NCBI GenBank assembly: GCA_947372965.1
Contig: CANBVR010000003.1
Location: forward strand, 1 to 56,302
Source: Actinomycetota bacterium
Lineage (GTDB): Bacteria; Actinomycetota; Actinomycetes; Nanopelagicales; Nanopelagicaceae
DNA length: 56,302 nucleotides
Direction: 5' to 3'
Every line of letters starts with the position of its first letter. Position 1 is the first letter of the stretch. This document shows positions 402 through 55,262 of the stretch, in pieces. Under the pieces are notes generated by a model. That model did not search any database. It had not been told where the DNA came from and saw only the letters and a list, made by a program, of their open reading frames with translations. The translations under genes were made by a program, and so were the position numbers.

Positions 402-407
402 TAAGGT
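402..407 (+). promoter_or_regulatory. Putative leaderless -10 element of cmk-der
   Basis: TAAGGT lies exactly six bases before the ATG at 414. This TANNNT-N6-start register recurs at many genes in the window and predicts transcription starting at the A of the start codon. No convincing Shine-Dalgarno sequence competes with it. No clear -35 was found. Confidence 0.5.
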
Positions 408-413
408 TAGGCC

Positions 414-2378
414 ATGGCCGGTATAACAGTTGCGATAGATGGCCCGAGCGGGTCAGGTAAATCAAGCACCGCCAAAGCAATTGCCACTAGAGCCAACTGG
501 AATTATTTAGATACTGGTGCGTTGTACAGAGCCGCGACTTGGCTTGCTCTTAAGGAAAATGTAACCGAGGGTTGGCAGATCATTGCCGCAATCAAAAACG
601 AACCGATAACTTTCAACGCAGATCCGAGGGATCCAAAGATTTTTTGCGCCGAGAAAGATATATCTTCAGAAATTAGAACTTTACGGGTTACAGATAATGT
701 AAGCCAAATAAGTCAGATTCCAGAATTGCGGTCTTATCTAGTTGAGATGCAACGATCAATTATCGCGCAGGCTGTTGCGGGAATTGTCGTTGAAGGAAGA
801 GATATTGGCACTGTTGTAGCTCCAGATGCAGCGCTAAAAGTATTTCTTTATGCTGATCTGCAAGCACGCGCTCTTCGTCGTGAGGCTGAAATGGAAGAGA
901 GTTCAACATCTGATGCTGTTGCACAATCCCTAAAAAGTCGGGATGAATTGGATTCAACTCGCAAGATTTCACCGCTACGTCCAGCTGAGGATGCTCTAGA
1001 ACTAGATTCCACCGAGCTTGATCTGCAGGAAGTTGTAGAAGTTATTTGGGAGTGGCTCTCGCGCAAAAACTTACTTGGTTTGCCAAAAGTTGCAGTTATT
1101 GGCCGACCTAACGTAGGAAAATCTACTCTTGTAAATCGAATTATCGGTCGACGTGAAGCAATTGTTGAGGACACCCCTGGTGTAACAAGAGATCGAGTTA
1201 AGTATGAAGCAGAATGGAATGGTCGCAGATTTATTCTGATTGATACTGGTGGTTGGGAGATGTCACCTGAAGGAATCTCAGAAAAAATTACCGCCGGATC
1301 GGAAGCTGCGATTCGAGAAGCAGATGTAATTCTCTTTGTTATTGATGCCCAAGTTGGTGCGCTGGATGAGGACTCATCACTCTTGGATTTACTTAGAAAG
1401 TCTAAGAAAAAAGTTATTTTGGCCGCGAATAAAGTTGATGGTCCTCCAGAAGAGGCGGAAGCGCATGCCTTGTGGAATTTAGGATTAGGTGAGCCAAGAT
1501 TTGTTTCTGCTTTGCATGGTCGCGGAAGTGGTGATCTCCTAGATTTCCTTGTTGAGTCCTTACCTGAAGTTGGAAGTGAGCAGGCCGATGATGGATATCG
1601 ACGTGTAGCACTGGTAGGGCGACCAAATGTAGGTAAATCAAGCATGCTTAATATTTTGGCCGGGGAGTCGCGAGTTATTGTTGATGATGCAGCTGGCACA
1701 ACTAGAGATCCAGTAGATGAATTGATCGAGATTGGTGATCAGACTTGGCGATTTATTGATACCGCAGGAATTCGTAAACGCGCCCATCAAGATAGCGGAA
1801 CTGACTATTACGCATCGCTACGCACTGCCACTGCATTGGATCGTGCAGAAGTGGCTGTTGTTGTATTAGATGCGTCAGTCCCTCTTACTGAACAAGATAT
1901 TCGGATCGTAACGATGGTAGAAGAGGCTGGTCGTGCGCTGGTTATTGTTATGAATAAGTGGGATTTGGTCGATGAAGAACGACAGATTGCCATCGATAAG
2001 GAGCTAGAACGCAATCTAGAACGATACCCATGGGCCCAACGCGTAAATGTTTCAGCTCTCACCGGATGGCACCGGGATCGATTGGCCCCAGCCCTTCGAA
2101 CCGCTCTTACTTCTTGGGAGAAACGAGTACCAACAAGCAAGTTGAACTCATTCCTTGGGGCTCTTATTGCCGCAACCCCACCACCTGTTCGAAGCGGAAA
2201 ACAGCCAAAGATTCGCTTCGCAACCCAGGCTGCGGTTTGTCCGCCAAAATTCGTTGTGTTCGCCAGCGATTGGGTTGAACCAAGTTATCGCCGCTTTATC
2301 GAGCGCAGACTTCGTGAGGAGTTTGGATTTCCAGGTACGCCGGTCGAGGTTGTCGTAAAGGTTAAAGAACGGGAGTAG
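414..2378 (+). CDS. cmk-der: Fused cytidylate kinase / ribosome-assembly GTPase Der
   Basis: A single 654-residue protein. Residues 1-215 are cytidylate kinase: P-loop GPSGSGKS near residue 10, the YLDTGALYR substrate segment and VVEGRDIGT. It phosphorylates CMP/dCMP. From about residue 223 follows Der (EngA): first G domain with GRPNVGKS near 229, second with GRPNVGKSS near 401, and a C-terminal KH-like domain ending in VVVKVKERE. Der acts in 50S ribosome assembly. The two genes are separate neighbours in Mycobacterium; bifunctional fusions are known in other actinobacteria. There is no stop or frameshift at the junction (about 1060-1080) and all GTPase motifs look intact. Confidence 0.95.
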
Positions 2379-2382
2379 TTTG

Positions 2383-2946
2383 ATGGAGAGTCGAATTCTC
2401 ACGATACCTAATTTAATTACCGGAGTTCGCGGGCTAGGCATTCCACTTTTTTTATATGTTTATTTAGCTTTAAACAGCGCCACACTTAGTTTCATTATTT
2501 TGGCAATCGGAGCCATCACAGATTATGCAGATGGCAAAGTTGCCAGAGCTCTTGGTCAGGAATCAAAATTGGGCGCTCTTTTGGATCCGGCAATTGATCG
2601 CGCCTACATTGCGGCAACCGTAATCGCATTAGCGGTTAATAACGTTTTACCTTTTTGGGTGTTGATAGCTTTGCTTGCCAGGGATATTTGGCTAGGGATC
2701 CTGTTAATTCCTATGAAGAAAATTGGTGCAGGATTTTTTGAGGTTACATTCTTAGGAAAGGCCGCTACTTTCAACCTTCTCTACGCCCTACCCTTTCTGC
2801 TTATTGCCGGAGAGAGTGGAATTGCTCGTATTTGGAGAATTTTCGGCTGGTCTTTTGCTATCTGGGGCCTTGGGCTATACCTTCTGACAGGATTTCAATA
2901 TAGTCGGGTTGCGTTTAGAACTTTGAGGTTCGCCAAGATCAATTAG
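2383..2946 (+). CDS. CDP-alcohol phosphatidyltransferase (PgsA-like)
   Basis: An integral membrane enzyme of about 187 residues. It has the complete CDP-alcohol phosphotransferase signature D-x2-DG-x2-AR-x8-G-x3-D-x3-D, beginning at DYADGKVAR and ending at LLDPAIDR. The family transfers a phosphatidyl group from CDP-diacylglycerol to an alcohol such as glycerol-3-phosphate or inositol phosphate; the exact acceptor cannot be read from the sequence. Several hydrophobic helices follow. I chose ATG 2383 over TTG 2380 because GGGAG at 2371-2375 is better spaced. It follows cmk-der by four bases. Position ahead of gcvH-garA resembles pgsA2 (Rv1822) in M. tuberculosis. Confidence 0.88.
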   Translation: MESRILTIPNLITGVRGLGIPLFLYVYLALNSATLSFIILAIGAITDYADGKVARALGQESKLGALLDPAIDRAYIAATVIALAVNNVLPFWVLIALLARDIWLGILLIPMKKIGAGFFEVTFLGKAATFNLLYALPFLLIAGESGIARIWRIFGWSFAIWGLGLYLLTGFQYSRVAFRTLRFAKIN

Positions 2947-2981
2947 GTTTTTCGACAAATTTAGAAAAAGGGGAGAAGTTA

Positions 2982-3362
2982 ATGTCAGTAGTACCGAACG
3001 AATTGCAATACACAAAGGAACATGAGTGGGTAGCAAGTACATCTACTCCCAATGTTTATCGCATTGGTATTACCGACTTTGCGCAGGGCGCTCTCGGGGA
3101 TATCGTGTACATACAATTACCCAAGATTGGCGATTCTCTAACTGCTGACAAGGTTTGTGGTGAAGTAGAGTCAACGAAAAGCGTTTCAGAAATTTATGCG
3201 CCCTTAACAGGCAAAGTTGTCGCGGTAAATACCGAATTGGACTCGGCTCCTGAATCAATCAACTCTGATCCATACGGCAATGGCTGGATTGCGGAGATCG
3301 AAGTTAGTAATCCTGTTTCGGGTCTACTTTCTGCCGCAGAGTACCTAGCCATTACGGCTTGA
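2982..3362 (+). CDS. gcvH: Glycine cleavage system H protein
   Basis: A 126-residue protein of normal family length. It carries the lipoyl attachment region EVESTKSVSEI, in which the lysine of STKS receives lipoate, and the family opening YTKEHEWV. The lipoyl arm shuttles the aminomethyl intermediate between the P, T and L proteins. The start is supported by a good AGGGGAG ribosome site upstream. GcvP lies 2.5 kb downstream with garA, ftsR, the nuclease and a MerR gene between, as in Mycobacterium; gcvT is not in the window. Confidence 0.95.
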   Translation: MSVVPNELQYTKEHEWVASTSTPNVYRIGITDFAQGALGDIVYIQLPKIGDSLTADKVCGEVESTKSVSEIYAPLTGKVVAVNTELDSAPESINSDPYGNGWIAEIEVSNPVSGLLSAAEYLAITA

Positions 3363-3401
3363 CCCTAAAGCGCTTTTTGCAATAGTGTCAGCCTCTAGTT
3401 G

Positions 3402-3413
3402 AACCTAAAGGTT
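3402..3413. promoter_or_regulatory. Perfect short palindrome upstream of garA-ftsR, candidate operator
   Basis: AACCTAAAGGTT is a perfect 12-base palindrome in the 96-base gap between gcvH and garA. It overlaps a -35-like TTGAAC. MerR-family proteins bind dyads in the promoter spacer, and two MerR genes lie immediately downstream. Assignment to either protein is inference. Confidence 0.3.
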
Positions 3414-3458
3414 AAATAGTTCTATTCACAAATTCTAGAAGCGAGATTGCGAGGATAA

Positions 3459-4649: not shown

Positions 4650-4693
4650 CGCTAGATATATCCACCATCCAGCAGCTATCACCGTATAAATAA

Positions 4694-5808: not shown

Positions 5809-5830
5809 AAAACTTTATCCTTCCCCTACG

Positions 5831-16574: not shown

Positions 16575-16580
16575 ACTTTA
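16575..16580 (-). promoter_or_regulatory. Putative leaderless -10 element of pafBC
   Basis: On the minus strand, TAAAGT is followed by six bases and ATG 16568. There is no Shine-Dalgarno sequence and no clear -35. This matches the TANNNT-N6-start pattern seen elsewhere in the window. Confidence 0.5.
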
Positions 16581-18082: not shown

Positions 18083-18088
18083 ATCCTA
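18083..18088 (-). promoter_or_regulatory. Putative leaderless -10 element of trmI
   Basis: TAGGAT on the minus strand sits six bases before the ATG at 18076, in the short gap after the HAD gene. It implies that trmI has its own promoter. Confidence 0.5.
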
Positions 18089-18730
18089 GTGGAGTGAAAA
18101 AAGTTGGTCGACACTTAAATTTTCTAGCGTATTTATAACAACAACTTTAGGCTTGGCGGCAATCGGCACTAAATGCGGAATCGCCACAACGAAAGCGCCA
18201 CTTGCCACCGCGGAACTAACGCCAGTATTTGTATCTTCAAGGACCAAGCAGTTTTCTATAGCAACACCAAGCTCTTTGGCGGCCTTTAAATAGCATTCCG
18301 GATCTGGTTTTGTATTTTGCACGTCATCTGCCGAAACAACAAAGTCAAAATACGGCTCGGGAAGCGCGCGTTGCGTTGCTGTTGCCAATTGCCTTGGACT
18401 AGCCGTGACGAGAGCCGTTGGGATCCCTCTTGCGCAAATTTCGGCAAGTAACTCAAGAGCTCCTGGCATAAATCGTAATTTAGATGAAAAATTCTTTGAA
18501 ACTAATGAAATCAAGGCTTCCATAAAGAATTCGGGATCGTTGTTTGAGTTTGATTTTTTGGCCATAATTTTTCCAACTCGAAGAAGTGGACCTCCTACGG
18601 TCTCCTTTTGGTCATCTTGCGTCCAGTTGTAATCGAATCGAGCCATCAATTCTCGCTCACTCTCAAACCAGATAGGCTCAGAATCAACGAGTGTTCCATC
18701 CATATCAAAGAAAACTGCCGATGGAATCAT
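18086..18730 (-). CDS. HAD-superfamily phosphatase/phosphomutase-like protein
   Basis: 214 residues with HAD motif I DMDGTLVDSEP near residue 9, motif II in VTASPRQLATA, and motif III/IV in KPDPECYLKAA and LEDTNTGVSSA. It resembles the beta-phosphoglucomutase/GPH subgroup; the substrate cannot be assigned. Its start overlaps the metH stop by four bases (ATGA), so it is probably co-translated with metH. A HAD gene near metH occurs in other actinobacteria, but no functional link is known to me. Confidence 0.85.
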   Translation of the reverse strand: MIPSAVFFDMDGTLVDSEPIWFESERELMARFDYNWTQDDQKETVGGPLLRVGKIMAKKSNSNNDPEFFMEALISLVSKNFSSKLRFMPGALELLAEICARGIPTALVTASPRQLATATQRALPEPYFDFVVSADDVQNTKPDPECYLKAAKELGVAIENCLVLEDTNTGVSSAVASGAFVVAIPHLVPIAAKPKVVVINTLENLSVDQLFSLH

Positions 18731-21700: not shown

Positions 21701-22215
21701 ATTGCAGCTTTAGCTTGCAAAAGGTCCTGAGTAGTTTCAATCAAAAGCGCATCAGCACCTGCATCCAATAGACCGCAAGATGCGGTGAAATACGCTGACT
21801 TTAAGTTTATATATTCAGTATGCCCAAGCGTTGGAAGTTTGGTTCCCGGCCCTAATGATCCTAAGACCCAACGTGGTTTCTCTTCCGTCGAAAATTCATT
21901 TGCAACCTCTTTTGCAAGTTTCGCTCCTGCAAAAGCAAGCTCGTATATCCGATCTTCAATTCCATACTCCGCAAGATTGGCCCAATTAGCTCCAAAGGTA
22001 TTAGTTTCGATCGCATCTACGCCGACGCTTAAGTATTTACGGTGAACAGCTTTAACAATATCCGGACGAGAGATGTTGAGAATCTCATTACATCCTTCAT
22101 GGCCTTGGAAATCTTCAAGTGTTGGATTCTCGGCCTGCAACATGGTTCCCATGGCTCCATCGGCAATAACAACGCGGGTGGCGATTGCTGCGCGCAGTGA
22201 CGATGAAGAGTTCAT
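18727..22215 (-). CDS. metH: Cobalamin-dependent methionine synthase
   Basis: 1162 residues with all four MetH modules. Homocysteine-binding domain (about 1-320) with zinc cysteines in GLNCATG and VGGCCGTT; pterin/methyltetrahydrofolate domain with IGERTNANGS; cobalamin domain with the cobalt-ligand histidine in GDVHDIGKN; reactivation domain at the C-terminus with RYSFGYPACPD. It methylates homocysteine to methionine and requires B12. No cobalamin riboswitch fits in the 36-base upstream gap. A TAGCCT lies seven bases before ATG 22215, one base off the leaderless spacing. Confidence 0.97.
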   Translation of the reverse strand: MNSSSSLRAAIATRVVIADGAMGTMLQAENPTLEDFQGHEGCNEILNISRPDIVKAVHRKYLSVGVDAIETNTFGANWANLAEYGIEDRIYELAFAGAKLAKEVANEFSTEEKPRWVLGSLGPGTKLPTLGHTEYINLKSAYFTASCGLLDAGADALLIETTQDLLQAKAAINGAREAINKSERDVVLIAQVTVETTGTMLMGSEIGAALNAIEPLDIDLIGLNCATGPAEMSEHLRVLSKNSTVDISVMPNAGLPILKDGGASYPLTPVELANFLSEFVDSYGITLVGGCCGTTPEHLAEVVKKLDRRPKKIRTVTPEIGASSLYQFVAFRQDNAYMSIGERTNANGSKAFREALLAEDWQSCIEIARDQIRDGAHMLDLSVDYVGRDGVSDMKEIASRLATSSTLPIMLDSTEPDVLRAGLEHLGGRSIINSVNYEDGDGPTSRFARIMPLVKEHGAAVVALTIDEEGQARTAEWKLKVATRLIENLHNDWNISVSDIMIDCLTFPIATGQEETRKDGIETLRAISDLKKLYPQVQTTLGVSNISFGLNPAARIVLNSVFLSEAVSAGLDSAIVHPSKITPMAKIDEKTKKVALDLVYDRREYDADGNTTYDPLQVFLELFDGVETKSTKISRAAELAALPLTQRLERRIIDGEKVGLEIDLQETLDLKISPITVINDYLLSGMKTVGELFGKGEMQLPFVLQSAEVMKTAVAWLEPHMEKSDDDGKGKILLATVKGDVHDIGKNLVDIILSNNGYTTVNIGIKQTVNQIIDAATENSVDVIGMSGLLVKSTVIMKENLEELSARKLAEKWPIILGGAALTRTFVEQDLAAIFPGTVRYAKDAFEGLHLMDAMMSVKRGEVGAQLPPLRERKTPNTRSLKPENQDTTRSDVQSDNKLPNPPFYGSKIIKGIPIANYLGMLDERALFVGQWGLQGKRGEYDQMVETEGRPRLRSLLNEVAANGWLNAAVVYGYFPCYSEGNELVILHHEGEHKGKERVRFKFPRQSRDARLCLSDFFRSKDSGEIDTVAFHVVTMGESVSAATAELFAANKYREYLELHGLSVQLTEALAEHWHARIREELGFSVDDSKEISEILDQGYRGSRYSFGYPACPDIEQQTQLCELLEPERIGVRLSEEFQLHPEQSTSAIIVHHPQAKYFNAT

Positions 22216-22251
22216 TTGGAGAAGGCTACCTTAAATTAAAGCCCAATATAT

Positions 22252-23502: not shown

Positions 23503-23508
23503 ATCTTA
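23503..23508 (-). promoter_or_regulatory. Putative leaderless -10 element of mshC
   Basis: TAAGAT on the minus strand is six bases before ATG 23496. It lies between mshC and the preceding SCO1664-type gene, so mshC may be transcribed separately from that set. Confidence 0.5.
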
Positions 23509-24776: not shown

Positions 24777-25450
24777 TTGCGATATCCACCCGACCCGCCA
24801 CCAAGCGTGGGCTTACTGGTGGCATCATTTCTCTTTTTCAGGTGCTGTGTCTGATTTACCTTTAGAACTCGGTTTATTTGACCAACAGAAACGATACTTA
24901 TAGATGCGGGGTCAATAGATATTTTCTGGAGATTATCAATGTGTGAACCCATAAACGAAGTTATAAGTGACTTAATTACATCACCGTGTGAGCAAATGAG
25001 AATATTCTTTCCAGGGATTGCAAGTGTCTGTACAGCATCAACAATTCGAGTATTCATCTCCATGAAACTCTCGCCATCTGGAAACCTCACCTGGCTTGGC
25101 GTCGATTGGATAGTTTTCCAAAGCGGCTTCTTAGCCAGAGTCGATATCTTGGAGCCAGACCATTGGCCATATTCCATCTCGATAAGCTCAGACCTTTTAG
25201 AGAGCTTTGTTTTCCGCCCAACCATCAATGGCTTCAAAGTCTCCAAGCAGCGTAGCAACGGACTTGAAAAGACTGCGGCAAATTCAATTTCTTTTAGGCT
25301 ATCGGCAAGATGGAGTGCATCCTCTCTACCCTGACTTGAGAGCGTTACTGAATTATCTCGCCCGGCAAGAATATTCTTTTGATTCGCAGTCGAATGTCCA
25401 TGGCGCACCAAGTAGACCAACCCTGGTTTTGAATTTAAAGAGGCGCGCAT
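24773..25450 (-). CDS. Histidine phosphatase family protein (MSMEG_4193 type)
   Basis: 225 residues with the histidine phosphatase signature VRHGHSTAN near residue 15, the second-half ICSHGDVIKSL containing the partner histidine, and SSPLLRCLETL. Members hydrolyse or transfer phosphate through a phosphohistidine. This actinobacterial subfamily always neighbours DUF3090. The C-terminal tail is Gly/Lys-rich. TAACCT (25457-25462) lies six bases before ATG 25450, suggesting the three-gene unit starts here as a leaderless transcript. Substrate unknown. Confidence 0.87.
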   Translation of the reverse strand: MRASLNSKPGLVYLVRHGHSTANQKNILAGRDNSVTLSSQGREDALHLADSLKEIEFAAVFSSPLLRCLETLKPLMVGRKTKLSKRSELIEMEYGQWSGSKISTLAKKPLWKTIQSTPSQVRFPDGESFMEMNTRIVDAVQTLAIPGKNILICSHGDVIKSLITSFMGSHIDNLQKISIDPASISIVSVGQINRVLKVNQTQHLKKRNDATSKPTLGGGSGGYRK

Positions 25451-25456
25451 AGGACT

Positions 25457-25492
25457 AGGTTACCGAGTTATCAATGGTGGGGTTGCTAGGGT
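25457..25492. promoter_or_regulatory. Back-to-back leaderless promoters in a 48-base divergent gap
   Basis: On the minus strand TAACCT (25457-25462) is six bases before ATG 25450. On the plus strand TAGGGT (25487-25492) is six bases before ATG 25499. Both fit TANNNT-N6-start, and the two -35 regions would have to overlap. No ribosome site is visible for either gene. Confidence 0.5.
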
Positions 25493-25498
25493 TTCGAT

Positions 25499-26446
25499 AT
25501 GGAATTACGCACTCTCGGAAACTCAGGCCTTCGGATCTCTCGACTGGGTCTTGGAACTATGACTTGGGGACGCGATACCGACGAACACGAAGCAGCAGAT
25601 CAACTCAAGACATTTCTGGACGCTGGGGGGAATTTGATTGATACTGCGGCCGTCTACGGCGATGGTGACAGTGAACGAGTAATCGGTGGCTTTATCGGGA
25701 CCATGGTCAAGCGGGAGGATCTAATCTTGGCCACTAAAGCGGGAATTTCTTTCGCAAGCGGAGAACGAGTTGTTAATAATTCACGTACCTCCTTGCTCGC
25801 CGATCTGGATAAATCACTTTCCCGGCTAGGTGTCGACAGCGTTGATCTCTGGCAGATCCATACTTGGGATGAAAACGTTCCACTCGAGGAAACTCTTACG
25901 GCAATGGATATCGCTCTAAACTCTGGGCGGGCAAGATATATAGGAGTTTCTAATTTCACTGGCTGGCAATTAGCAAGAGCAGCTACTTTGCAAAATCCTC
26001 TATTTAGTAAGGCGCAAATCGTTTCAATTCAATCCGAATACTCGTTACTCAATCGCGAGATTGAAAATGAGGTTATGCCAGCTTGCAGCGAAATGAATAT
26101 TGGCACATTAGCCTGGTCTCCCCTTGGTCGTGGAGTGTTAACCGGCAAATATCGCGGAGGTACACCCTCTGATTCTCGTGGCGCAAGCCCACATTTCTCT
26201 GGTTTTGTTTCTCCTTACTTTGACGATCGTTCAAGTCGAATTGTTGATGCTGTCGCTGTCGCCGCTGAAGGTTTGGGTTACTCACCCCTGGAAGTTGCAC
26301 TTTCTTGGGTACGGGATGGAATCGGAGTCAGCTCTGCAATCCTTGGAGCAAGGACTGCCGCGCAATTGCGTGGAGCTTTAACTGTTGAGGAGATAACTCT
26401 TCCCGATCAAGTCCGCGCTGCCTTGGATGAAGTTTCAGCCCTTTAA
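25499..26446 (+). CDS. Aldo/keto reductase
   Basis: 315 residues, a TIM-barrel AKR with the usual catalytic set: Asp in LIDTAAVYG, Tyr in the same segment, Lys in LATKAG, and His in WQIHTWD. C-terminal nucleotide-binding motif around GVSSAILGARTAAQL. It probably reduces an aldehyde or ketone with NADPH; the substrate is unknown. It is a single-gene unit divergent from the phosphatase and convergent with the M20 peptidase. Confidence 0.93.
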   Translation: MELRTLGNSGLRISRLGLGTMTWGRDTDEHEAADQLKTFLDAGGNLIDTAAVYGDGDSERVIGGFIGTMVKREDLILATKAGISFASGERVVNNSRTSLLADLDKSLSRLGVDSVDLWQIHTWDENVPLEETLTAMDIALNSGRARYIGVSNFTGWQLARAATLQNPLFSKAQIVSIQSEYSLLNREIENEVMPACSEMNIGTLAWSPLGRGVLTGKYRGGTPSDSRGASPHFSGFVSPYFDDRSSRIVDAVAVAAEGLGYSPLEVALSWVRDGIGVSSAILGARTAAQLRGALTVEEITLPDQVRAALDEVSAL

Positions 26447-27807: not shown

Positions 27808-27813
27808 ATCCTA
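27808..27813 (-). promoter_or_regulatory. Putative leaderless -10 element of the M20 peptidase gene
   Basis: TAGGAT on the minus strand followed by six bases and ATG. The same bases contain AGGA, which could also act as a weak ribosome site, so the two readings compete. Confidence 0.45.
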
Positions 27814-30498: not shown

Positions 30499-30504
30499 TA
30501 AACT
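30499..30504 (+). promoter_or_regulatory. Putative leaderless -10 element of the YczE-like gene
   Basis: TAAACT followed by six bases and GTG 30511. The register supports GTG as the real start. Confidence 0.5.
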
Positions 30505-31803: not shown

Positions 31804-32589
31804 TTATGAAATTGCGTTTGCCGAGAAGCGATTTCCAATTTGTGTAACAGTGATAGGCATCCCATAGGCTAAAGTCAGATTCTCCGAGGTCAAAACTTGA
31901 GATACTGGTCCTGAAGCAACGCTTTTGCCATCTTTTAGGAGAAGCGCATGCGTAGAGCTTGCTGGAATCTCTTCGATGTGATGTGTGATCATTAAGGTTG
32001 CCGGGGCGTTTGGGTCCCTTGCTAAAATCTCAAAGCGCTTGAGTAGATCTTCTCTTCCACCAAGATCCAAACCAGATGCGGGCTCATCCAATAGGAGTAA
32101 TTCCGGATCTGCCATAAGGGCTCGAGCGATCATTGTCCGCTTCTTCTCCCCATCGCTAAGGGTGAAAAAATATCGACTGGCCAATTCTCTTACCCCTAAT
32201 GTGGTTAGCAGCGCCGAGGCTCTAGATTCATCCCATAATTCGTAAGGTTCATTCCATCTACCAACAATTGCGTATGCCGCAGTGAGTACAACATCGATTA
32301 CCTTCTCGTCATCTGGAAGGTAGTTTAGAAGAGACGGACCCATCAACCCGATTCGAGGCCGCAGTTCGAAGACATCAACAGCACCTAGTTTCTTTTCAAG
32401 AATGGAAACGCTGCCCGCTGTTGGGTGCATTTGCGTCGCGGCTATCGTAAAAAGTGTGGTTTTACCTGCGCCATTTGCGCCTAGAACTACCCAGCGTTCG
32501 CCTTCGTTGACCGACCAGGAAATTGGACCAAGGATTGTTTTGCCGCCACGTACGACAGATACGTTCTGAAAATCTAGAACCTTGCCCAT
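31804..32589 (-). CDS. ABC-type ATPase without adjacent permease
   Basis: 261 residues. Walker A GANGAGKTT near residue 37, signature LSDGEKKR, Walker B LLLLDEPASGLDL, and H-loop ITHHIEE. No membrane component is adjacent. It resembles Rv3041c, which also neighbours serB2 in M. tuberculosis; that synteny is retained here. Substrate unknown; it may pair with a permease elsewhere or act as a soluble ATPase. Confidence 0.9.
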   Translation of the reverse strand: MGKVLDFQNVSVVRGGKTILGPISWSVNEGERWVVLGANGAGKTTLFTIAATQMHPTAGSVSILEKKLGAVDVFELRPRIGLMGPSLLNYLPDDEKVIDVVLTAAYAIVGRWNEPYELWDESRASALLTTLGVRELASRYFFTLSDGEKKRTMIARALMADPELLLLDEPASGLDLGGREDLLKRFEILARDPNAPATLMITHHIEEIPASSTHALLLKDGKSVASGPVSQVLTSENLTLAYGMPITVTQIGNRFSANAIS

Positions 32590-32595
32590 GGCGCA

Positions 32596-32641
32596 AAGAT
32601 ACCTTTTTTCATCGGCAGGAAGGTGTTCAACCCGCTAAAGT
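32596..32641. promoter_or_regulatory. Divergent leaderless promoters between the ABC ATPase gene and serB
   Basis: Minus strand: TATCTT (32596-32601) six bases before ATG 32589. Plus strand: TAAAGT (32636-32641) six bases before GTG 32648. The second match settles the serB start in favour of GTG. Confidence 0.5.
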
Positions 32642-32647
32642 TTGCAA

Positions 32648-33850
32648 GTGGAGAAGAATACATACACCGGCCTTGTGCTTTTATCTGGAGTCGATGCGCC
32701 AGGTGTGACTCAGGCCTTATTTTCAGCTCTCTCCCCTTTCTCCCTAATTATTCTTGATATCGAACAAGTAGTTATCAGGGGGCGACTGATTTTGACTGCG
32801 CTCATTGCTTTGGACCCGGCGCATGCCCCAGCAATAGAAACAGACCTGATAGAAATGGCAAAGCAACTTGATCTTGATCTTGCAATTGACTATTCCGAAG
32901 GCGAAAATTCAAATGAAGATTCTCGAAGTCATCTTCACATAGTGGCATTATCTCCAAATCTGAAAGCAGAAGGTGTAGCTGCAATAGCCAGTGAAATAAG
33001 CAAAAATGGTGGAAATATCGATCGTATTCGACGAACTGCTTCATATCCTTTAACTGCAATTGAATTTGATGTTTCTTTCCCTGCGTCAGGTATGGATCTA
33101 AAAAAAGTCCAGGGAAGTTTGGCGACGATCGCCCGATCCAATGGCATTGACATTGCAGTTGAGCGCAGTGGTTTAGCCAGACGCGCAAAGCGCATCGTCT
33201 TATTGGATATGGATTCTACGTTGATAAAGGAAGAGGTTATCGATCTACTTGCGAATAAGGTAGGAGTTGGAGAGCAAGTGGCGCAAATAACCGAACGTGC
33301 CATGAAGGGTGAGTTGGATTTTAAGCAGTCCTTACAGGAACGAGTTGGACTACTTGGCGGGTCCTCGGACAAGATTCTTGGAGAGGTTGCTAAAGAGATA
33401 ACACTTTCTCCCGGTGCAAGAACCTTGGTTCGTACACTTCACCGTCTCGGACACAAAGTCGGAGTTGTTTCTGGTGGATTTTTGGATGTCATAGAGCCTA
33501 TTCTTAATGAGCTTAATATTGATTTTTACCGTGCAAACAAACTCGAAGTTGTTAACGGAGTTCTAACGGGCAAACTTTTGGGTGAAATAATTGATCGCGA
33601 TGCAAAGGCATCTGCCCTTCGGCAGTTCGCCACTGATGAAGGAGTCGCTCTTAGCCAAACCATAGCTATTGGTGATGGTGCAAACGACCTAGGAATGCTA
33701 GAAGTTGCTGGACTCGGAATAGCTTTCAATGCAAAGCCCGCGGTGCGTGAGGCCGCCGATAGCACTATTAATTCTCCATACCTAGATGCCGTGCTTTATC
33801 TAATGGGTATCACCCGCGAAGAGATTGAAAAAGCAGACTTAGAAAGTTAA
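32648..33850 (+). CDS. serB: Phosphoserine phosphatase with N-terminal ACT domains (SerB2 type)
   Basis: About 400 residues. Two ACT-like domains (about 1-165; SGVDAPGVTQALF, IEQVVIRGRLILTALI) precede a HAD phosphatase with LLDMDSTLIKEEV, SGGFLDVIEP and GDGANDLGMLEVAG. It catalyses the last step of serine synthesis; ACT domains usually bind serine. I chose GTG 32648 because TAAAGT ends six bases upstream; TTG 32642 would fall inside that spacer. Convergent with hisG, gap three bases. Confidence 0.94.
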   Translation: MEKNTYTGLVLLSGVDAPGVTQALFSALSPFSLIILDIEQVVIRGRLILTALIALDPAHAPAIETDLIEMAKQLDLDLAIDYSEGENSNEDSRSHLHIVALSPNLKAEGVAAIASEISKNGGNIDRIRRTASYPLTAIEFDVSFPASGMDLKKVQGSLATIARSNGIDIAVERSGLARRAKRIVLLDMDSTLIKEEVIDLLANKVGVGEQVAQITERAMKGELDFKQSLQERVGLLGGSSDKILGEVAKEITLSPGARTLVRTLHRLGHKVGVVSGGFLDVIEPILNELNIDFYRANKLEVVNGVLTGKLLGEIIDRDAKASALRQFATDEGVALSQTIAIGDGANDLGMLEVAGLGIAFNAKPAVREAADSTINSPYLDAVLYLMGITREEIEKADLES

Positions 33851-35014: not shown

Positions 35015-35692
35015 CTATTTTAACTTACTTGTCTCTGCTCGCGCTCTTAAATTCGAACACATCTCACCAGGATCCGAGGCTTGGAAAACAGCGCTTCCAG
35101 CAACAAAGGTATCTGCCCCGGCTGATGAGGCTAAAGCGATCGTATCCAGCGAGATACCACCATCAACTTGTAACCAAACTTTTGACAGAGCTCTTTGGTC
35201 AAGTTCCTTACGGGCAAATTCCACTTTAGTCATCATCTCATCCATGAATTTTTGACCTCCGAAGCCAGGTTCGACGGTCATAATCAGAATCATGTCGAGT
35301 TCATCTATGAGTGGCAAAATACTTGAAAATGGTGTCTTAGGTTTTAGTGCGATTGCCGCACGCGAACCAAATTCATGGATTTTCGAAATCGTCTCGCGTG
35401 GTTTCATACTTGCTTCAATATGAAAAGTCACGCTGTGGCAGGCAGCTTTAGCATATTCGATGGCTATTTCATCTGGATTATGTACCATTAAATGGGCATC
35501 TACTGGTAACTCGCTTTTAGAAACAATCTCCCTGGATTGTTCAAGTGAAAATGTCTGATTTGGAACAAAAATATTATCCATTATGTCAAGATGAAGTAGG
35601 TCCGCCTGTTTTGCTACCTTAGAAATCTCGTCAAATATTTGGCTATGGTTGGCGTTTAGAACACTTGGACAAATTCGAATATCGCGCTCCAT
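35015..35692 (-). CDS. rpe: Ribulose-phosphate 3-epimerase
   Basis: 225 residues. [38 protein letters not shown] and LQVDGGI cover all metal and substrate motifs. It interconverts ribulose-5-P and xylulose-5-P. I chose ATG 35692 because TACAAT is placed exactly six bases upstream (35699-35704) and the family length fits. An upstream in-frame ATG at 35752 would overlap rsmB and add a non-conserved tail. Confidence 0.94.
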
Positions 35693-35698: not shown

Positions 35699-35704
35699 AT
35701 TGTA
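35699..35704 (-). promoter_or_regulatory. Putative leaderless -10 element of rpe
   Basis: TACAAT, very close to the canonical -10, followed by six bases and ATG 35692. It lies next to the 3' end of rsmB. Confidence 0.55.
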
Positions 35705-38559: not shown

Positions 38560-38565
38560 ATTCTA
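38560..38565 (-). promoter_or_regulatory. Putative leaderless -10 element of def-fmt
   Basis: TAGAAT followed by six bases and ATG 38553, in the 32-base gap after priA. Confidence 0.5.
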
Positions 38566-41644: not shown

Positions 41645-41648
41645 TGCG

Positions 41649-42836
41649 CTAACCTAACTTAACTTGGGCCCTTTTTAATAATTCAAAAGCGAGCGTGTCT
41701 TTGTTATTTAGATCAAATTTCTCAGAATTTCCATCACTATCGATGACCCAACCAGATGTCTGATCGGATCCAAAGATCGCCCCATTGCTGACATCATTTA
41801 CGTAAATAAGATCTGCGCCTTTTGCAACGCATTTGCGTCTGCCTTCCACCACAATGTCCCCACTAGTTTCGGCAGCGAAAGCTATTACAACTTGACCTTT
41901 CTTGAAAGACTTTAGATCCACTAGGAGATCTGGATTTGGTGATAATTTGATAGTTTCCAAATCCGATTTCTTAATTTTTTCATTCGCAATTTTTTCAACT
42001 TTGGCATCTGCCACAGCTGCAGTCATGAAAAGCGCATCTGTCTTAGTAAATTCGATATTCAATACCTCCTGCATCTGCGAGGCACTTTCTACATTTATGC
42101 GTCTAACTCCCAGCGGGGTCGGCAAATCGCAATTTGCAGCTATAAGAGTTACCTCTGCTCCTTGGCTACGCGCTACCTTTGCAATCGCAAATCCTTGCTT
42201 ACCAGTGGAACGATTACCTATGTAACGTACGGGATCGATGGGTTCACGTGTACCTCCGGCAGTTACTAAAATCTGCTTTCCAAGGAGTGGTGAAGTAATT
42301 TCTAAAAAGGTGGTGGTCTCCTTAATAATACGTTCCACCGTTGGATATCGACCAACACCAATATCTTCGCCGGTCATGCGGCCTTCGTCTGGTTCTATGA
42401 CTAGAACTCCACGGTTACGCAGACGCTCAACATTCTCTTGGGTGGCTTTATGACTCCACATCTCAGGATGCATCGCTGGTATCAAAATCAATGGGGCGGT
42501 CGTTGCCAAAACTATATTGGTTAAGAGATCATCGGCCAGACCATTTGCTAACTTAGCCAACAGATCAGCTGTAGTCGGCGCTATGAGAATTGCACTTGCT
42601 TTCTTTGATAATTTGATATGCGCAACGTCGTGAACGTTATTCCAAAGGCTGGTGGGTACAGGATGGCCGGAGAGAGCTTCCCAAGTGGCCGTGCCAACAA
42701 AATTTAAACTCGCCTTCGTCGGAACGACGCTCACGTCCAAGCCAACATCTTGCAACCTTCGCAAGAGATCGGCCGACTTGTACGCGGAAATCCCGCCGCC
42801 AATACCAAGAATTACCTCTCGGCCGGAAAACTTCAT
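41649..42836 (-). CDS. coaBC: Bifunctional phosphopantothenoylcysteine decarboxylase/synthase
   Basis: 395 residues. CoaC flavin domain (1-185: [20 protein letters not shown], the catalytic His in [16 protein letters not shown] and PAMHPEMW) and CoaB domain (about 190-395: [31 protein letters not shown]). Two consecutive steps of coenzyme A synthesis. TCTAAT is six bases before the ATG, a near miss to TANNNT. Preceded by rpoZ, as in other actinobacteria. Confidence 0.96.
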
Positions 42837-52160: not shown

Positions 52161-52161
52161 T

Positions 52162-53130
52162 CTAATTCACCACTTCTTTCGAATTCGAAACCACATTTAG
52201 AGGCGTTCCTCCCAGAAGTTGGTATAGAACTGCCATCCGTACTAAGACACCATTTGAAACTTGCGCTAAAACCACAGATTGAAGTGAATCCGCACTGGCA
52301 GCAGAAATTTCAAGACCTCTATTCATTGGGCCAGGGTGCATCACGATCGCCTTGGATTTGAGAGACTCCAGACGATCTTGATCTAACCCAAAACCTCTTG
52401 AATATTCTCTGGCAGTTGGAAAGAAAGCTTCATTCATTCGCTCACTTTGAATTCGCAGCATCATTACGACATCTACATTTTTTAAAATTGAGTCAAAGTT
52501 ATAACTTACTTTTACACCCCAGGATTCAACGCCAACTGGTAAGAGAGTTGGAAGCGATACAAGCGTTACTTCAGCGCCCAACTTCTTTAAGAGCAGGACA
52601 TTACTTCGAGCCACACGTGAATGAAGAATGTCTCCTACGATTGCAACTTTAAGACCGGAAAAGTCACTTTTGAGTTCCGGAAATTTGCTCCGAATTGTGT
52701 AAGCATCCAAGAGCGCTTGCGTTGGATGTTCATGAGTCCCATCTCCAGCATTTATGACAGAGGCTGAAATCCACCCCGAGTCGGCCAATCGGGCGGCCGC
52801 ACCAGAAGCGCTATGTCTGATGATTACCGCATCTGCACCCATCGCCTGCAAAGTTTGGGCCGTATCTTTTAGCGATTCTCCTTTGCTAACCGAAGAACCT
52901 TTTGCTGAGAAGTTGATGACATCGGCAGATAGTCGTTTTGCCGCACTTTCAAAGGAAATTCGAGTGCGAGTTGAATCCTCAAAGAAGAGATTCACAACTG
53001 TTCGGCCTCGAAGCGTAGGAAGCTTCTTCATTGCCCCATCAGATATCTTCGAAAGTTCAAATGCGGTATCAAGAATAGAGATTGCCTCGCTACGATCTAG
53101 GTCGCCGATGCTTAACAGGTGGCGATTCAT
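52162..53130 (-). CDS. pyrB: Aspartate carbamoyltransferase catalytic chain
   Basis: 322 residues. Carbamoyl-phosphate motif [13 protein letters not shown], aspartate-binding HPTQALLD and MHPGPMNRG. First committed pyrimidine step. No pyrI regulatory chain is adjacent. Overlaps pyrR by four bases. Confidence 0.97.
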
Positions 53131-53660
53131 TCGTGACCACCTGCAAGTATTGACACTCCATCCTCATTATCAATTTCTTGGAGTGATACCTTCACGATCT
53201 CAACTGCCGAAGTTGGAATATTCTTACCGACGTAATCGGCCCTAATTGGAAGTTCACGATGTCCGCGATCGACTAGAACCGCTAATTGAACCGACTTTGG
53301 GCGCCCGATCTCACCTAACGCATCTAGTGCAGCGCGGATAGTTCTTCCCGAATAGAGAACATCATCGACCAAGACGACATCTTTTCCTTCAATTCCACCA
53401 AGAGGCAGAACGGTTGGGAGCAGCGCCTTTGGAGGTCGCATCCGTAGATCATCTCTATGCAAAGTAACATCGAGAGTTCCTACATTTACCGGTCCCTCAA
53501 TCTCTGAGAGGAATTGGCCGATACGGTTACCAAGAAAGGCACCCCGCGTGGGTATTCCAAGAATCACTAGATTAGATAGGCCATGGTTTCGCTCAATGAT
53601 TTCATGAGCAATACGTTTTAAAGCGCGGCTAATATCGCCGGCATCTAGTACAGCTGCCAT
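53127..53660 (-). CDS. pyrR: Bifunctional pyr-operon regulator / uracil phosphoribosyltransferase
   Basis: 177 residues with the PRPP-binding motif [18 protein letters not shown]. PyrR binds pyr mRNA when UMP is abundant; it may also act as a uracil phosphoribosyltransferase. ATG 53660 is fixed by the AAGGAGAG ribosome site (plus-strand 53663-53670). The possible earlier start at 53741 would translate the regulatory hairpin and is rejected. It heads the pyr gene run and its leader carries a PyrR-binding sequence. Confidence 0.96.
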
Positions 53661-53662
53661 TT

Positions 53663-53670
53663 CTCTCCTT
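53663..53670 (-). promoter_or_regulatory. Ribosome binding site of pyrR
   Basis: AAGGAGAG on the minus strand, two bases before ATG 53660 with its core at proper spacing. It lies two bases downstream of the predicted PyrR-binding hairpin, so bound PyrR could block it. Confidence 0.75.
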
Positions 53671-53672
53671 CG

Positions 53673-53688
53673 CCGCCTCTCGGGACGG
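53673..53688 (-). promoter_or_regulatory. Candidate PyrR-binding hairpin in the pyr leader
   Basis: The minus strand reads CCGTCCCGAGAGGCGG. Its GTCCCGAGAGGC core matches all positions of RUCCNGNGAGGY, the core of the PyrR-binding loop consensus recalled from Bacillus. CCG/CGG and CC/GG can pair to form a hairpin with a CGAGA loop. In mycobacteria PyrR represses translation by binding near the ribosome site, and the spacing here suits that mechanism. No Bacillus-style attenuator terminator was seen. Confidence 0.72.
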
Positions 53689-53710
53689 ATCGTTAAAGGA
53701 CTACTAGCGC

Positions 53711-53716
53711 AAGATA
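53711..53716 (-). promoter_or_regulatory. Possible -10 element for the pyr operon
   Basis: TATCTT on the minus strand would start a leader of about 44 bases that contains the hairpin and ribosome site. No convincing -35 is visible. Confidence 0.3.
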
Positions 53717-53757
53717 CCACCTGTGGATAAGAAAATCCCAATCACGACTCGCCTCTC

Positions 53758-53763
53758 TATCTT
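53758..53763 (+). promoter_or_regulatory. Putative leaderless -10 element of the bldD-like gene
   Basis: TATCTT followed by exactly six bases and ATG 53770. The divergent pyrR promoter is about 45 bases away. Confidence 0.5.
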
Positions 53764-53769
53764 AGGTAT

Positions 53770-54264
53770 ATGAACTTAAATGAACGCACCATTGAAGAGA
53801 TCGCCCAATCAATCCGCGCCATCCGCAAGCAGAAAGGTCTGACGCTCAAGGAAGTTGAGACTCAATCTAACGGCATCTGGAAAGCAGTCGTCATAGGATC
53901 ATATGAACGTTGCGATCGGGCTCTCTCCCTCAAGAAAGCAATCTCTCTTGCCAATTTTTACCAAGTTCCGTTGGATGAGTTACTTGGACTGGGTAGTGTG
54001 CAAAATGACAGAAATTCTGGCAACGATCTGCCCGATAAATTCACCATCGATATTCGAAGAATTTCCACTTTAGCAAAGGTGGATGAGAAAGCCCGATCGA
54101 TAACCACACTGCTGGCACTTTTTTGTGCAAAGCGAAGAGATTGGAATGGCGAAGTTATCACGATTCGAAAAAGTGATCTAGAGATAGTCGCCATACTTGG
54201 AAATGAGCGAGAAAATCAGAGCTATGGATGGCTGAGGGATAATTCGCTCTTAATTAAAAGGTAG
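53770..54264 (+). CDS. bldD: BldD-type transcriptional regulator with c-di-GMP signature
   Basis: 164 residues. N-terminal helix-turn-helix (about 10-75: IAQSIRAIRKQKGLTLKEVE, VIGSYERCDRALS) and a C-terminal domain aligned with BldD. The Streptomyces c-di-GMP motif R-x-D-x8-R-x-x-D is intact: R122-x-D124, eight residues, R133-x-x-D136. In Streptomyces bldD also lies beside pyrR and nusB, so orthology is well supported. BldD with c-di-GMP represses development genes there; the role in a non-sporulating organism would differ. Confidence 0.9.
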   Translation: MNLNERTIEEIAQSIRAIRKQKGLTLKEVETQSNGIWKAVVIGSYERCDRALSLKKAISLANFYQVPLDELLGLGSVQNDRNSGNDLPDKFTIDIRRISTLAKVDEKARSITTLLALFCAKRRDWNGEVITIRKSDLEIVAILGNERENQSYGWLRDNSLLIKR

Positions 54265-54282
54265 TTTGGTAGAAATATAAGA

Positions 54283-54306
54283 CTAAAGCGCGAACGAGGG
54301 CTTTAG
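54283..54306. terminator. Inverted repeat between convergent bldD-like gene and nusB
   Basis: CTAAAGC and GCTTTAG, seven perfect pairs with a ten-base loop, cover the nusB stop. Position between convergent genes is consistent with transcription termination. There is no clear T run, and it overlaps coding sequence. Confidence 0.3.
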
Positions 54307-54690
54307 AGCGATGATGCGACCGAGTACGCCGTTAATATATTTAGCTGATTCCTCAGTCGAATACTCCTGGGCAAGAATTATTGCTTGCGATGCTGCAATT
54401 TGATCATCGATATCTGCGCCCCATAAAATTTCATAAAGAGCAATTCGCATTATATTTCGGTCGACTGTCGGCATTCTGTCGATATCCCAACCTTGTGCGT
54501 AGGTCGTAATTAGCTCATCGATCTTCCGCAGATTTAACTCGATACCGTTGATAATCATCACTACATAATCCTCTTGTGATAACTCTGAAGCCGGTCTGGA
54601 GAAAAGAAGATCGCTTGCCTTGCTATTTCTCAGATCTGATTCGAAAAGAAGATCTAAAGCCCTTTTACGAGCTTTTGTACGAGCACTCAC
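54283..54690 (-). CDS. nusB: Transcription antitermination factor NusB
   Basis: 135 residues, all-helical NusB fold: [15 protein letters not shown] at the start, [19 protein letters not shown] in the middle, and [11 protein letters not shown] near the end. With NusE it binds boxA RNA in rRNA antitermination. ATG overlaps the efp stop by four bases. Confidence 0.95.
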
Positions 54691-55250
54691 GAGTTGGCGC
54701 GACCGAGATAATCTCCGGTACGAGTATCTACCAAAATCTTCTCATCTTGCTTGATAAAGAGCGGAACTTGAATCTGGATTCCAGTTTCAATCGTTGCCGG
54801 CTTTGTTCCACCAGACGAGCGATCTCCTTGTAAGCCAGGCTCGGTATAGGTAACAACCATTTCAACTGAGGCAGGAAGTTCAACGTAAAGAGGGTTATTT
54901 TCGTGAATTGCTACATTCGCTTTGCAATTCTCAAGCATGTAATTAACAGATTCTCCAACTACATCCTCGGAGATATTCATTTGATCGAAAGTTTTATCGT
55001 CCATAAAGACAAAGTCATCGCCATCGCGATAGAGGAAGGTCATGTCGCGTTTTTCAAGAATCGCTACCTCAACTTTTACACCGGCATTGAATGTTCGGTC
55101 AATTACTTTGCCCGAAATTACTGACTTCAATTTTGTGCGGACGAAAGCTGGTCCTTTTCCTGGTTTTACGTGTTGGAATTCAACTACGTTCCAGAGCTGC
55201 CCTTCAATATCTAGGGTCATGCCATTCTTGAGATCGTTTGTAGTAGCCAT
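54687..55250 (-). CDS. efp: Translation elongation factor P
   Basis: 187 residues, three-domain EF-P: the tip loop KPGKGPAF contains Lys32 as the modification position, and the C-terminal OB fold has the signature around [16 protein letters not shown]. Relieves ribosome stalling at proline runs. The tip has P-G-K-G-P, as in actinobacteria. TATCCT (55257-55262) is six bases before the ATG; the spacer has CCTCCC, the opposite of a ribosome site. Confidence 0.96.
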
Positions 55251-55256
55251 GGGAGG

Positions 55257-55262
55257 AGGATA
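55257..55262 (-). promoter_or_regulatory. Putative leaderless -10 element of efp-nusB
   Basis: TATCCT on the minus strand, six bases, then ATG 55250. The intervening sequence resembles the anti-Shine-Dalgarno rather than a Shine-Dalgarno, which argues for leaderless initiation. Confidence 0.5.

What the first reader, a model, noticed from the sequence alone, without database searches (positions are those of the whole stretch)
402..55262. Fixed TANNNT-N6-start register at 16 genes: pervasive leaderless transcription
Reading upstream of start codons, TANNNT occurs exactly six bases before the start of cmk-der (402), pafB (16575), trmI (18083), mshC (23503), the histidine phosphatase (25457), aldo/keto reductase (25487), M20 peptidase (27808), YczE-like gene (30499), ABC ATPase (32596), serB (32636), hisE (35017), rpe (35699), def (38560), metK (41651), bldD (53758) and efp (55257). 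Three fixed bases would match by chance at only a few percent of genes. Leaderless transcripts are known in actinobacteria, but this share of non-overlapping genes in one window is high. In several cases the element lies inside the preceding gene.
Basis: partly seen in the sequence, partly recalled or inferred. Interest (0 to 1): 0.75.

Follow-up and report, generated by a model that had tools for sequence, protein, structure and literature searches.

The report
Leaderless promoters fused to stop codons
Many genes of this freshwater bacterium appear to start transcription exactly at the first letter of the protein-coding part, a known actinobacterial habit, and where genes are packed tightly the stop codon of one gene often seems to double as part of the next gene's promoter, which we did not find described.

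Summary
All 16 TANNNT-N6-start elements are where stated. With starts chosen without looking at the motif, distance six is enriched about 19-fold in the window (13 of 53 genes against 0.7 per control distance) and about 7-fold in 20 other stretches of the genome (29 of 375 against 4.2). The boxes are conserved in register: kept at d6 or d7 in 68 of 76 orthologs whose start codon is in place; when the start codon moves the box moves with it, 13 of 13. Bases around d6 starts look like transcription starts (C at -1, ATG/GTG, no TTG), with little Shine-Dalgarno and no clear -35. Leaderless transcription from -10 elements is well supported but ordinary for Actinobacteria: published shares run from about 17 to 33%, this window has about 29%. 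Less expected: boxed operon-like junctions sit mostly at gaps of 9 or 4 bases (20 of 29 families), where the upstream TAA/TAG stop supplies the TA, or the stop's T the final T, of the box. Five paper searches aimed at this found no description. No RNA data were available.

The parts
402..407 (+). -10 box TAAGGT of cmk-der (start 414)
   Evidence: kept in 3 of 3 orthologs
16575..16580 (-). -10 box TAAAGT of pafB-like WYL gene (start 16568)
   Evidence: kept 3 of 3; WYL domain
18083..18088 (-). -10 box TAGGAT of trmI-like methyltransferase (start 18076)
   Evidence: start moved by 3 bases in 2 of 2 orthologs and box keeps d6
18086..18088 (-). TAG stop codon of the upstream HAD-like gene (18086-18730); it is also the first three letters of the trmI box (gap 9)
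23503..23508 (-). -10 box TAAGAT of mshC (start 23496)
   Evidence: kept 6 of 6
25457..25462 (-). -10 box TAACCT of histidine phosphatase gene (start 25450)
   Evidence: d6 in 1 of 2, d6 or d7 in 2 of 2
25487..25492 (+). -10 box TAGGGT of aldo/keto reductase gene (start 25499), divergent to the previous one
   Evidence: d6 in 7 of 8, d6 or d7 in 8 of 8
27808..27813 (-). -10 box TAGGAT of M20 peptidase gene (start 27801)
   Evidence: not kept in the 1 usable ortholog
30499..30504 (+). -10 box TAAACT of YczE-like gene (GTG start 30511)
   Evidence: kept 2 of 2
32596..32601 (-). -10 box TATCTT of ABC ATPase gene (start 32589)
   Evidence: d6 in 3 of 9, d6 or d7 in 9 of 9; moved start 1 of 1 at d7
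32636..32641 (+). -10 box TAAAGT of serB (GTG start 32648), divergent to the ABC gene
   Evidence: start moved in 4 orthologs, box at d6 of the new start in 4 of 4; the 1 ortholog with a start codon at the same place has no box there
35017..35022 (-). -10 box TAAAAT of hisE (start 35010)
   Evidence: kept 9 of 10
35015..35017 (-). TAG stop codon of rpe; its T is the last T of the hisE box (gap 4)
35699..35704 (-). -10 box TACAAT of rpe (start 35692)
   Evidence: no usable ortholog
38560..38565 (-). -10 box TAGAAT of def (start 38553)
   Evidence: kept 10 of 10
41651..41656 (-). -10 box TAGGTT of metK (start 41644)
   Evidence: kept 15 of 15, plus 2 of 2 with moved start; 28 of 30 named acI-like loci at d6 or d7
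41649..41651 (-). TAG stop codon of coaBC; its T is the last T of the metK box (gap 4)
53758..53763 (+). -10 box TATCTT of bldD-like gene (start 53770)
   Evidence: start moved in 4 of 4 orthologs, box keeps d6 in all
55257..55262 (-). -10 box TATCCT of efp (start 55250)
   Evidence: kept in only 1 of 6 orthologs
   Evidence: none of 4 in-place orthologs has it at d6 or d7

Best explanation
Each TANNNT is the -10 element of a promoter read by the housekeeping sigma-70-type factor, placed so that RNA synthesis begins at the A or G of the start codon. The mRNA has no leader and no Shine-Dalgarno, and the ribosome must start on the 5'-terminal AUG/GUG. In this compact genome the promoter-plus-start unit needs only the 12 bases before the start codon, so it can be squeezed into gene junctions; there the stop codon of the upstream gene commonly supplies part of the -10 box (TAA/TAG as its TA at a 9-base gap, or the T of the stop as its last T at a 4-base gap). 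Shown here: position, enrichment, conservation, co-movement with the start codon, near absence of SD, no clear -35, and the junction geometry. Inferred: that RNA starts at the start codon, that sigma-70 reads the box, and that the leaderless mRNA is translated.
For: Register 42 of 428 motif-blind starts against 4.9 per control distance; in 1552 genes sampled from eight acI-like genomes the excess is 11-19% of genes. In-register box kept in 60 of 76 in-place orthologs (68 of 76 with d7), against 35 of 189 for TANNNT at all distances other than 6 and 7, of which 21 are a second TANNNT at d11 before metK (15 of 15) and hisE (6 of 10); present in 1 of 160 orthologs of genes without a box. When the start codon moves the box follows, 13 of 13, against 0-2 of 13 at each other distance and 1 of 58 for other genes. 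Among 139 d6 genes of four genomes C at -1 is 58% (rest 23%), T at -6 53% (25%), starts 118 ATG, 21 GTG, 0 TTG (rest 58 TTG of 977). SD-like 5-mers in 2% of d6/d7 starts against 25% of all starts in G000. metK: box at d6 or d7 in 28 of 30 acI-like named loci and SD-like 5-mers in 0 of 30; in the 50 other named Actinobacteria loci box in 3, SD-like in 40. Stop-box fusion: 13 of 23 families at gap 9 and 7 of 14 at gap 4 are boxed, 0 of 24 at gaps 12-14, 2 of 91 at gaps 0-3.
Against: No RNA or protein evidence. Three of 16 lack ortholog support: efp (1 of 6), M20 (0 of 1), rpe (no usable ortholog). The motif-blind gene caller is home-made, so shares are estimates. A weak T excess at -35 and 11 of 139 matches to TTGACA (4 or more of 6) at spacer 18, against 1-9 at other spacers, leave room for a faint -35. 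At a 9-base gap the stop gives two of three letters for free, so part of the fusion excess is geometry: T at -7 alone, 14 of 21 TAR stops, is only mildly above a local baseline of 0.44 (p 0.03). The stronger statistic is the joint one, in which gap 9 is itself over-represented (23 families against a neighbour mean of 8.4), and it depends on that baseline; for gap 4 the expectation rests on a chance of 0.06 for TA that I assumed (0.025 was measured at neighbouring gaps). Nine of the 29 boxed operon-like families are not fused, six of them at gap -4 (of 128).
Confidence: 0.93

Rival explanations
1. The boxes are real -10 elements but transcription starts one to five bases away from the start codon, giving very short leaders rather than true leaderless mRNAs.
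For: A sizeable minority of boxes sit at d7 (37 against 88 at d6 among 789 acI starts), and ABC ATPase orthologs switch between d6 and d7; spacers of 3-11 nt between -10 motif and start site are reported for C. glutamicum (PMC3890552, passages).
Against: Steep fall on both sides (d5 2, d6 88, d7 37, d8 13, background 9.4); C at -1 with purine at +1 and T at +2 at the start codon, and no TTG starts among 139 d6 genes.
Confidence: 0.05
2. Chance or base composition: in an AT-richer actinobacterium TANNNT is common and a motivated reader will find it.
Against: Motif-blind starts still give 8-9 times the control distances; conservation and co-movement.
Confidence: 0.01
3. The element is a translation signal in the mRNA (an AU-rich ribosome-binding enhancer) and transcripts begin further upstream.
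For: Sequence alone cannot exclude it; some boxed genes lie in operon-like junctions.
Against: The letters fit the actinobacterial -10 TANNNT, with C/G at -15 in 61% (42% in other genes) and a start-site-like -1 C (compare PMC3898074; A/G at -14, also reported there, is no commoner here than in other genes, 68 against 67%); the position is fixed to one or two bases.
Confidence: 0.02
4. Stop-box fusion is only geometry: d6 boxes are impossible at gaps 5, 6, 8, 10 and 11, and a TAA/TAG stop at gap 9 makes two of three letters for nothing; no selection is involved.
For: The geometric exclusions are exact; T at -7 at gap 9 is 14 of 21, p 0.03 against the local baseline.
Against: Gap 9 is itself over-represented and boxed gap-9 families exceed expectation (13 against 2.3-3.3, Poisson p 9e-7 to 5e-5); gap 4, where only one letter is free, is boxed in 7 of 14 against an expected 0.84 (p 3e-5, with an assumed 0.06 for TA), while gaps 0-3 and 12-14, where a box is possible, are boxed in 2 of 91 and 0 of 24. 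The pattern shifts by one base (gap 10 with d7: 3 of 8 families here, 6 of 17 junctions in other Actinobacteria).
Confidence: 0.25

Closest known systems
TA-led (leaderless) genes of Actinobacteria, Zheng et al. 2011 (PMC3160421; abstract and passages seen)
   Same: TANNNT about 12 bases upstream of the start, read as a -10 box; about 20% of genes in Actinobacteria; classed apart from SD-led genes.
   Different: I saw no mention of this freshwater family in the passages shown; nothing on stop codons inside the box was seen.
Leaderless transcripts of C. glutamicum, S. lividans, M. tuberculosis (PMC3890552, PMC8079986, PMC3898074; passages seen)
   Same: TAnnnT -10; no or weakly conserved -35; AUG 79% and GUG 21% in C. 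glutamicum, here 85% and 15% (118 and 21 of 139).
   Different: Those rest on mapped RNA ends; here sequence only. The genome here is a 1.27-Mb assembly and the window is about 45% G+C.
-10 region next to ORFs in Deinococcus-Thermus (PMC12340547; listing, start of abstract and term search only)
   Same: -10 adjacent to the start as a common mode of expression.
   Different: Other phylum; the words stop and termination codon do not occur in that paper's main text.
Stop codon overlapping the next gene's Shine-Dalgarno (PMC2784483; abstract and passages seen)
   Same: Short intergenic gaps and stop codon usage adapt so that the stop doubles as an initiation signal of the next gene.
   Different: There the shared signal is the SD in RNA, favouring TGA or TAG; here it is the -10 box in DNA, which only TAA/TAG can supply at gap 9.

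Membership tests
Actinobacterial leaderless (TA-led) genes | TANNNT about 12 bases upstream of the start codon at a fixed distance | tested here: met
Actinobacterial leaderless (TA-led) genes | no Shine-Dalgarno upstream | tested here: met
   SD-like 5-mers in 2% of d6/d7 starts against 25% of all starts, G000
Actinobacterial leaderless (TA-led) genes | start codon AUG or GUG | tested here: met
   118 ATG, 21 GTG, 0 TTG among 139 d6 genes; among 37 d7 genes 1 is TTG
Actinobacterial leaderless (TA-led) genes | transcription-start-like bases (C at -1, purine +1, T +2) | tested here: met
   C at -1 58% against 23%; +1/+2 follow from ATG/GTG
Actinobacterial leaderless (TA-led) genes | -35 weak or absent | tested here: met
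   TTG at spacers 16-18: 5, 5, 4 of 139, against 0-5 at other spacers 8-27; 4-of-6 matches to TTGACA 11 at spacer 18, 1-9 elsewhere
Actinobacterial leaderless (TA-led) genes | 5' end of mRNA at the start codon | not testable with these tools
   no RNA data
Actinobacterial leaderless (TA-led) genes | sigma-70-type factors encoded by the genome | tested here: met
   three Sigma70_r2 matches over the cut-off in G000; which one reads the box is not shown

The most novel reading that the evidence does not exclude
In these genomes, and probably across other Actinobacteria, the stop codon of one gene is used as part of the -10 promoter element of the next gene. One TAA/TAG then ends translation of one protein and helps open the DNA for leaderless transcription of the next, so that the whole regulatory region of a gene inside an operon is 9 (or 4) base pairs between genes, and selection sets both the gap length and the choice of TAG/TAA over TGA.
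Probability: 0.6. Interest if true: 0.6.

Novelty: new member of a known kind. Interest (0 to 1): 0.42.

Why it matters
For gene annotation, the fixed register is a strong clue to true start codons in little-studied freshwater actinobacteria; in 13 of 13 moved starts the box pointed to a new start. For genome streamlining, it suggests a testable rule for how promoters persist in genomes with almost no intergenic space: the stop codon doubles as part of the -10 box. Operon calls based on short gaps would then miss internal leaderless promoters.

Tried and rejected
Whole-genome pattern count without gene context: no excess, uninformative because most matches are not at starts. Apparent sharper preference for d6 over d7 in acI than elsewhere (103:12 against 19:20 in the metK-centred loci): rejected, because with spread-out stretches it is 88:37 against 22:13, p 0.41; the metK loci repeat the same genes. 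A first, codon-only gene caller found 29 genes in the window and was replaced. TANNNT retention at d11 (21 of 28) looked like a second register; it comes from two genes only, metK 15 of 15 and hisE 6 of 10, and was not pursued. A -35 element: no clear one. 16S rRNA for the anti-SD: none found in this assembly. A Deinococcus-Thermus test of stop-box fusion was begun (two plasmid stretches) and not carried out; those stretches are in no count. Rows dropped before counts: starts within 75 bases of a stretch end; in the ortholog table, hits under 45% identity, beginning after residue 4, or within 45 bases of a locus end; in the family-by-family look, families of one member or of more than eight.
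Full report
WHAT WAS CHECKED. All 16 elements were read out at the stated coordinates; each has TANNNT, six bases, then ATG (14 genes) or GTG (YczE-like, serB). The gene names mostly hold up: NCBIfam or Pfam matches support cmk-der, mshC, histidine phosphatase, aldo/keto reductase, M20 peptidase, YczE, ABC ATPase, serB, hisE, rpe, def, metK, efp, and bldD as a relative below the curated cut-off; pafB is supported only as a WYL-domain protein and trmI only as some methyltransferase.

IS IT MORE THAN CHANCE. To avoid choosing starts by the motif, I wrote a gene caller that uses in-frame codon statistics only. It covers about 92% of the window. Over the window and 20 further 20-kb stretches of the same 1.27-Mb genome, 428 starts were examined. 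TANNNT at distance six occurs at 42 of them; at control distances 12-60 the mean is 4.9 and the maximum 9. In the window alone it is 13 of 53 against 0.69, outside 29 of 375 against 4.2, with distance seven also raised (15). The three claimed genes not counted among the 13 are ones that the caller missed (YczE-like, bldD) or started elsewhere (histidine phosphatase). The plain count of the pattern in the whole genome shows no excess over its reversed form (394 against 427).

WHERE IT COMES FROM. The nearest named records by MetK are freshwater actinobacterial assemblies, some titled Candidatus Nanopelagicaceae or Candidatus Planktophila. The genome of isolate LanE43 (G033; G078 has the same metK coordinates) is placed in the same family as the window, as are G045, G057, G069 and G087; IMCC26103 and IMCC19121 I group with them by MetK similarity only (83 and 82%). 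I call the group acI, a name recalled and not from a call.

CONSERVATION. Orthologs were located by protein similarity in loci of same-genus genomes, up to 17 genomes per gene. Where the start codon is at the same place, a box at d6 in the window is kept at d6 in 60 of 76 orthologs and at d6 or d7 in 68 of 76: metK 15 of 15, def 10 of 10, hisE 9 of 10, mshC 6 of 6, cmk-der 3 of 3, pafB 3 of 3, YczE 2 of 2, and, when d7 is allowed, aldo/keto 8 of 8, ABC ATPase 9 of 9, histidine phosphatase 2 of 2. TANNNT at distances other than 6 and 7 is kept in 35 of 189; 21 of these 35 are a second TANNNT at d11 before metK (15 of 15) and hisE (6 of 10). Genes without a box have one in 1 of 160 orthologs. 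In 13 claimed genes with in-place orthologs, bases -7, -11, -8 and -12 are the four most conserved of the 30 upstream (0.89, 0.88, 0.82, 0.76). Against the reading: efp has the box in only 1 of 6 relatives, M20 in 0 of 1, serB in 0 of 1 in-place, and rpe had no usable ortholog.

The most telling test is what happens when a start codon moves. In 13 orthologs of boxed genes (serB 4, bldD 4, trmI 2, metK 2, ABC 1) there is no start codon at the aligned place; in all 13 an in-frame start within 30 bases has the box at d6 (12) or d7 (1), whereas each other distance from 3 to 39 gives 0-2 of 13, and unclaimed genes give 1 of 58.

HOW IT WORKS. The box fits the actinobacterial -10 element, and the surroundings of 139 d6 starts from four genomes look like transcription starts: C at -1 in 58% (23% in other genes), T just after the box in 53% (25%), C at -15 in 40% (17%), ATG or GTG but no TTG, and no clear -35 motif (TTGACA-like matches are slightly raised, 11 of 139, at spacer 18). 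M. tuberculosis start sites show the same C at -1 and T at +2, and an SRN before many TANNNT (PMC3898074, passages); here the S is seen, the R is not commoner than in other genes. SD-like 5-mers occur in 2% of d6/d7 starts against 25% of all starts in this genome. The genome has three sigma-70-family matches; that the primary factor reads these boxes is inference. That RNA begins at the start codon, and that the leaderless mRNA is translated, is inference.

metK AS AN EXAMPLE. In the 80 named MetK loci, a box at d6 or d7 of an in-frame start was found in 31 (27 at d6). By my grouping 30 loci are acI-like, and 28 of these 30 have it (L081 and L143 do not); the other three are L141, L142 and L144 at d7, of which L142 and L144 are titled Cellulomonas. 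SD-like 5-mers stand before metK in 0 of the 30 acI-like loci and in 40 of the 50 others. So metK appears to have changed from SD-led to leaderless in the ancestry of this group; that is inference from the pattern, no tree was made.

HOW COMMON. Excess of d6+d7 over control distances, as a share of all genes: this genome 11.3% (window included), IMCC26103 15.3%, IMCC19121 19.1%, LanE43 16.7%, four further genomes of the family together 17.1%. Other Actinobacteria by the same method: Nanopelagicales M30B38 11.1%, Nocardioides ungokensis 9.2%, Phycicoccus elongatus 3.8%, Cellulomonas massiliensis -0.1%, five mixed class members 6.1%. Allowing alternative starts of similar coding score changes this little (own stretches outside the window 12.1%, three acI genomes 13.9-21.8%, others -0.2 to 14.0%). 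Published values are 17-33% in the RNA-mapped species seen and 19.2% on average (2.3-29.8) in the Actinobacteria of Zheng 2011; these use other denominators. The window, at 16 of about 56, is within the known range.

A STEP BEYOND THE FINDING. Three of the 16 boxes overlap the end of the preceding gene, and all three share letters with its stop codon: trmI (gap 9; TAG is the TAG of TAGGAT), hisE and metK (gap 4; the T of TAG is the last T of the box). I therefore tabulated box against gap for the same-strand junctions among 1552 genes from stretches of eight acI-like genomes, 1156 families after keeping one member per homolog family. At operon-like gaps (-8 to 14) 29 of 427 families have a d6 box, and 20 of the 29 sit at gap 9 (13 of 23) or gap 4 (7 of 14). 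The other nine are at gaps -4 (6 of 128), -1 (1 of 76), 1 (1 of 8) and 3 (1 of 19). Gaps 5, 6, 8, 10 and 11 cannot carry a d6 box, because the stop codon letters forbid it, but gaps 0-3, 7 and 12-14 can and have 2 of 91, 0 of 9 and 0 of 24. Gap 9 is itself over-represented (23 against a neighbour mean of 8.4), and boxed gap-9 families exceed expectation (13 against 2.3-3.3; Poisson p 9e-7 to 5e-5 depending on the baseline); gap 4 gives 7 against 0.84 (p 3e-5, with an assumed chance of 0.06 for TA). At d7 the same fusion appears at gap 10 (3 of 8). Stops at gap 9 are TAA 11, TAG 11, TGA 1 of 23, against TAA 267, TAG 82, TGA 32 of 381 overall (all). In other Actinobacteria already held, gap 9 with d6 is 7 of 14 and gap 10 with d7 is 6 of 17, against 6 boxed junctions at the other operon-like gaps (-1, 2, 2, 12, 13, 14), of 441 junctions in all (many of these loci surround metK and are not independent). 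A caution: given a TAA/TAG at gap 9, T at -7 alone is only mildly enriched (14 of 21, p 0.03 against a local baseline of 0.44), so part of the pattern is that the stop gives two of three letters for nothing.

In the 11 families of two to eight members with a fused junction, 21 of 27 members are boxed; six members keep a d6 box where the upstream same-strand stop lies 16 to 132 bases away or the neighbour is divergent, and six members have no box. So the box does not depend on the stop; stops and boxes have come to coincide.

LITERATURE. Three were aimed at this group of bacteria and showed no study of its leaderless genes or start sites; five were aimed at stop codons within promoters of leaderless genes and showed none. 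I saw passages, not whole texts, of the closest papers. The nearest idea is the adaptation of stop codons and short gaps to the Shine-Dalgarno (PMC2784483). The library is open-access only, so absence from it is weak evidence.

VERDICT. Observation confirmed, interpretation supported by sequence evidence, kind already known; the coincidence of stop codons with -10 boxes at 9- and 4-base gaps is the part worth a specialist's time.

Noticed in passing
L071-L150, upstream of metK: metK has a leaderless box in 28 of 30 acI-like loci but an SD-like 5-mer in 40 of 50 other Actinobacteria; three of those others (L141, L142, L144; two titled Cellulomonas) carry a d7 box.
   Followed up: partly
L081 and L143, upstream of metK: Two acI-like relatives lack the d6/d7 register before metK.
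   Followed up: no
window 55250-55262 (efp): efp is boxed here and in G012 but five of six relatives have no box at d6 or d7, so initiation mode may switch between close relatives.
   Followed up: no
window upstream of metK (41644) and hisE (35010): Both genes carry a second TANNNT at distance 11, kept in 15 of 15 and 6 of 10 orthologs; it lies within the end of the preceding gene and its meaning is unknown.
   Followed up: partly
L075, L076: Record titles say Bifidobacterium breve, but MetK (85%) and G+C (42-46%) fit the freshwater group; the names are probably wrong.
   Followed up: no
window 25450-25499 and 32589-32648: Two divergent gene pairs have back-to-back boxes with 48 and 58 bases between the start codons.
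   Followed up: no
window 22215-22228 (metH): metH has a d7 box TAGCCT that none of the 4 in-place orthologs shares at d6 or d7.
   Followed up: partly
G000: No 16S rRNA gene was found in this 73-contig assembly, so the anti-SD could not be read.
   Followed up: no
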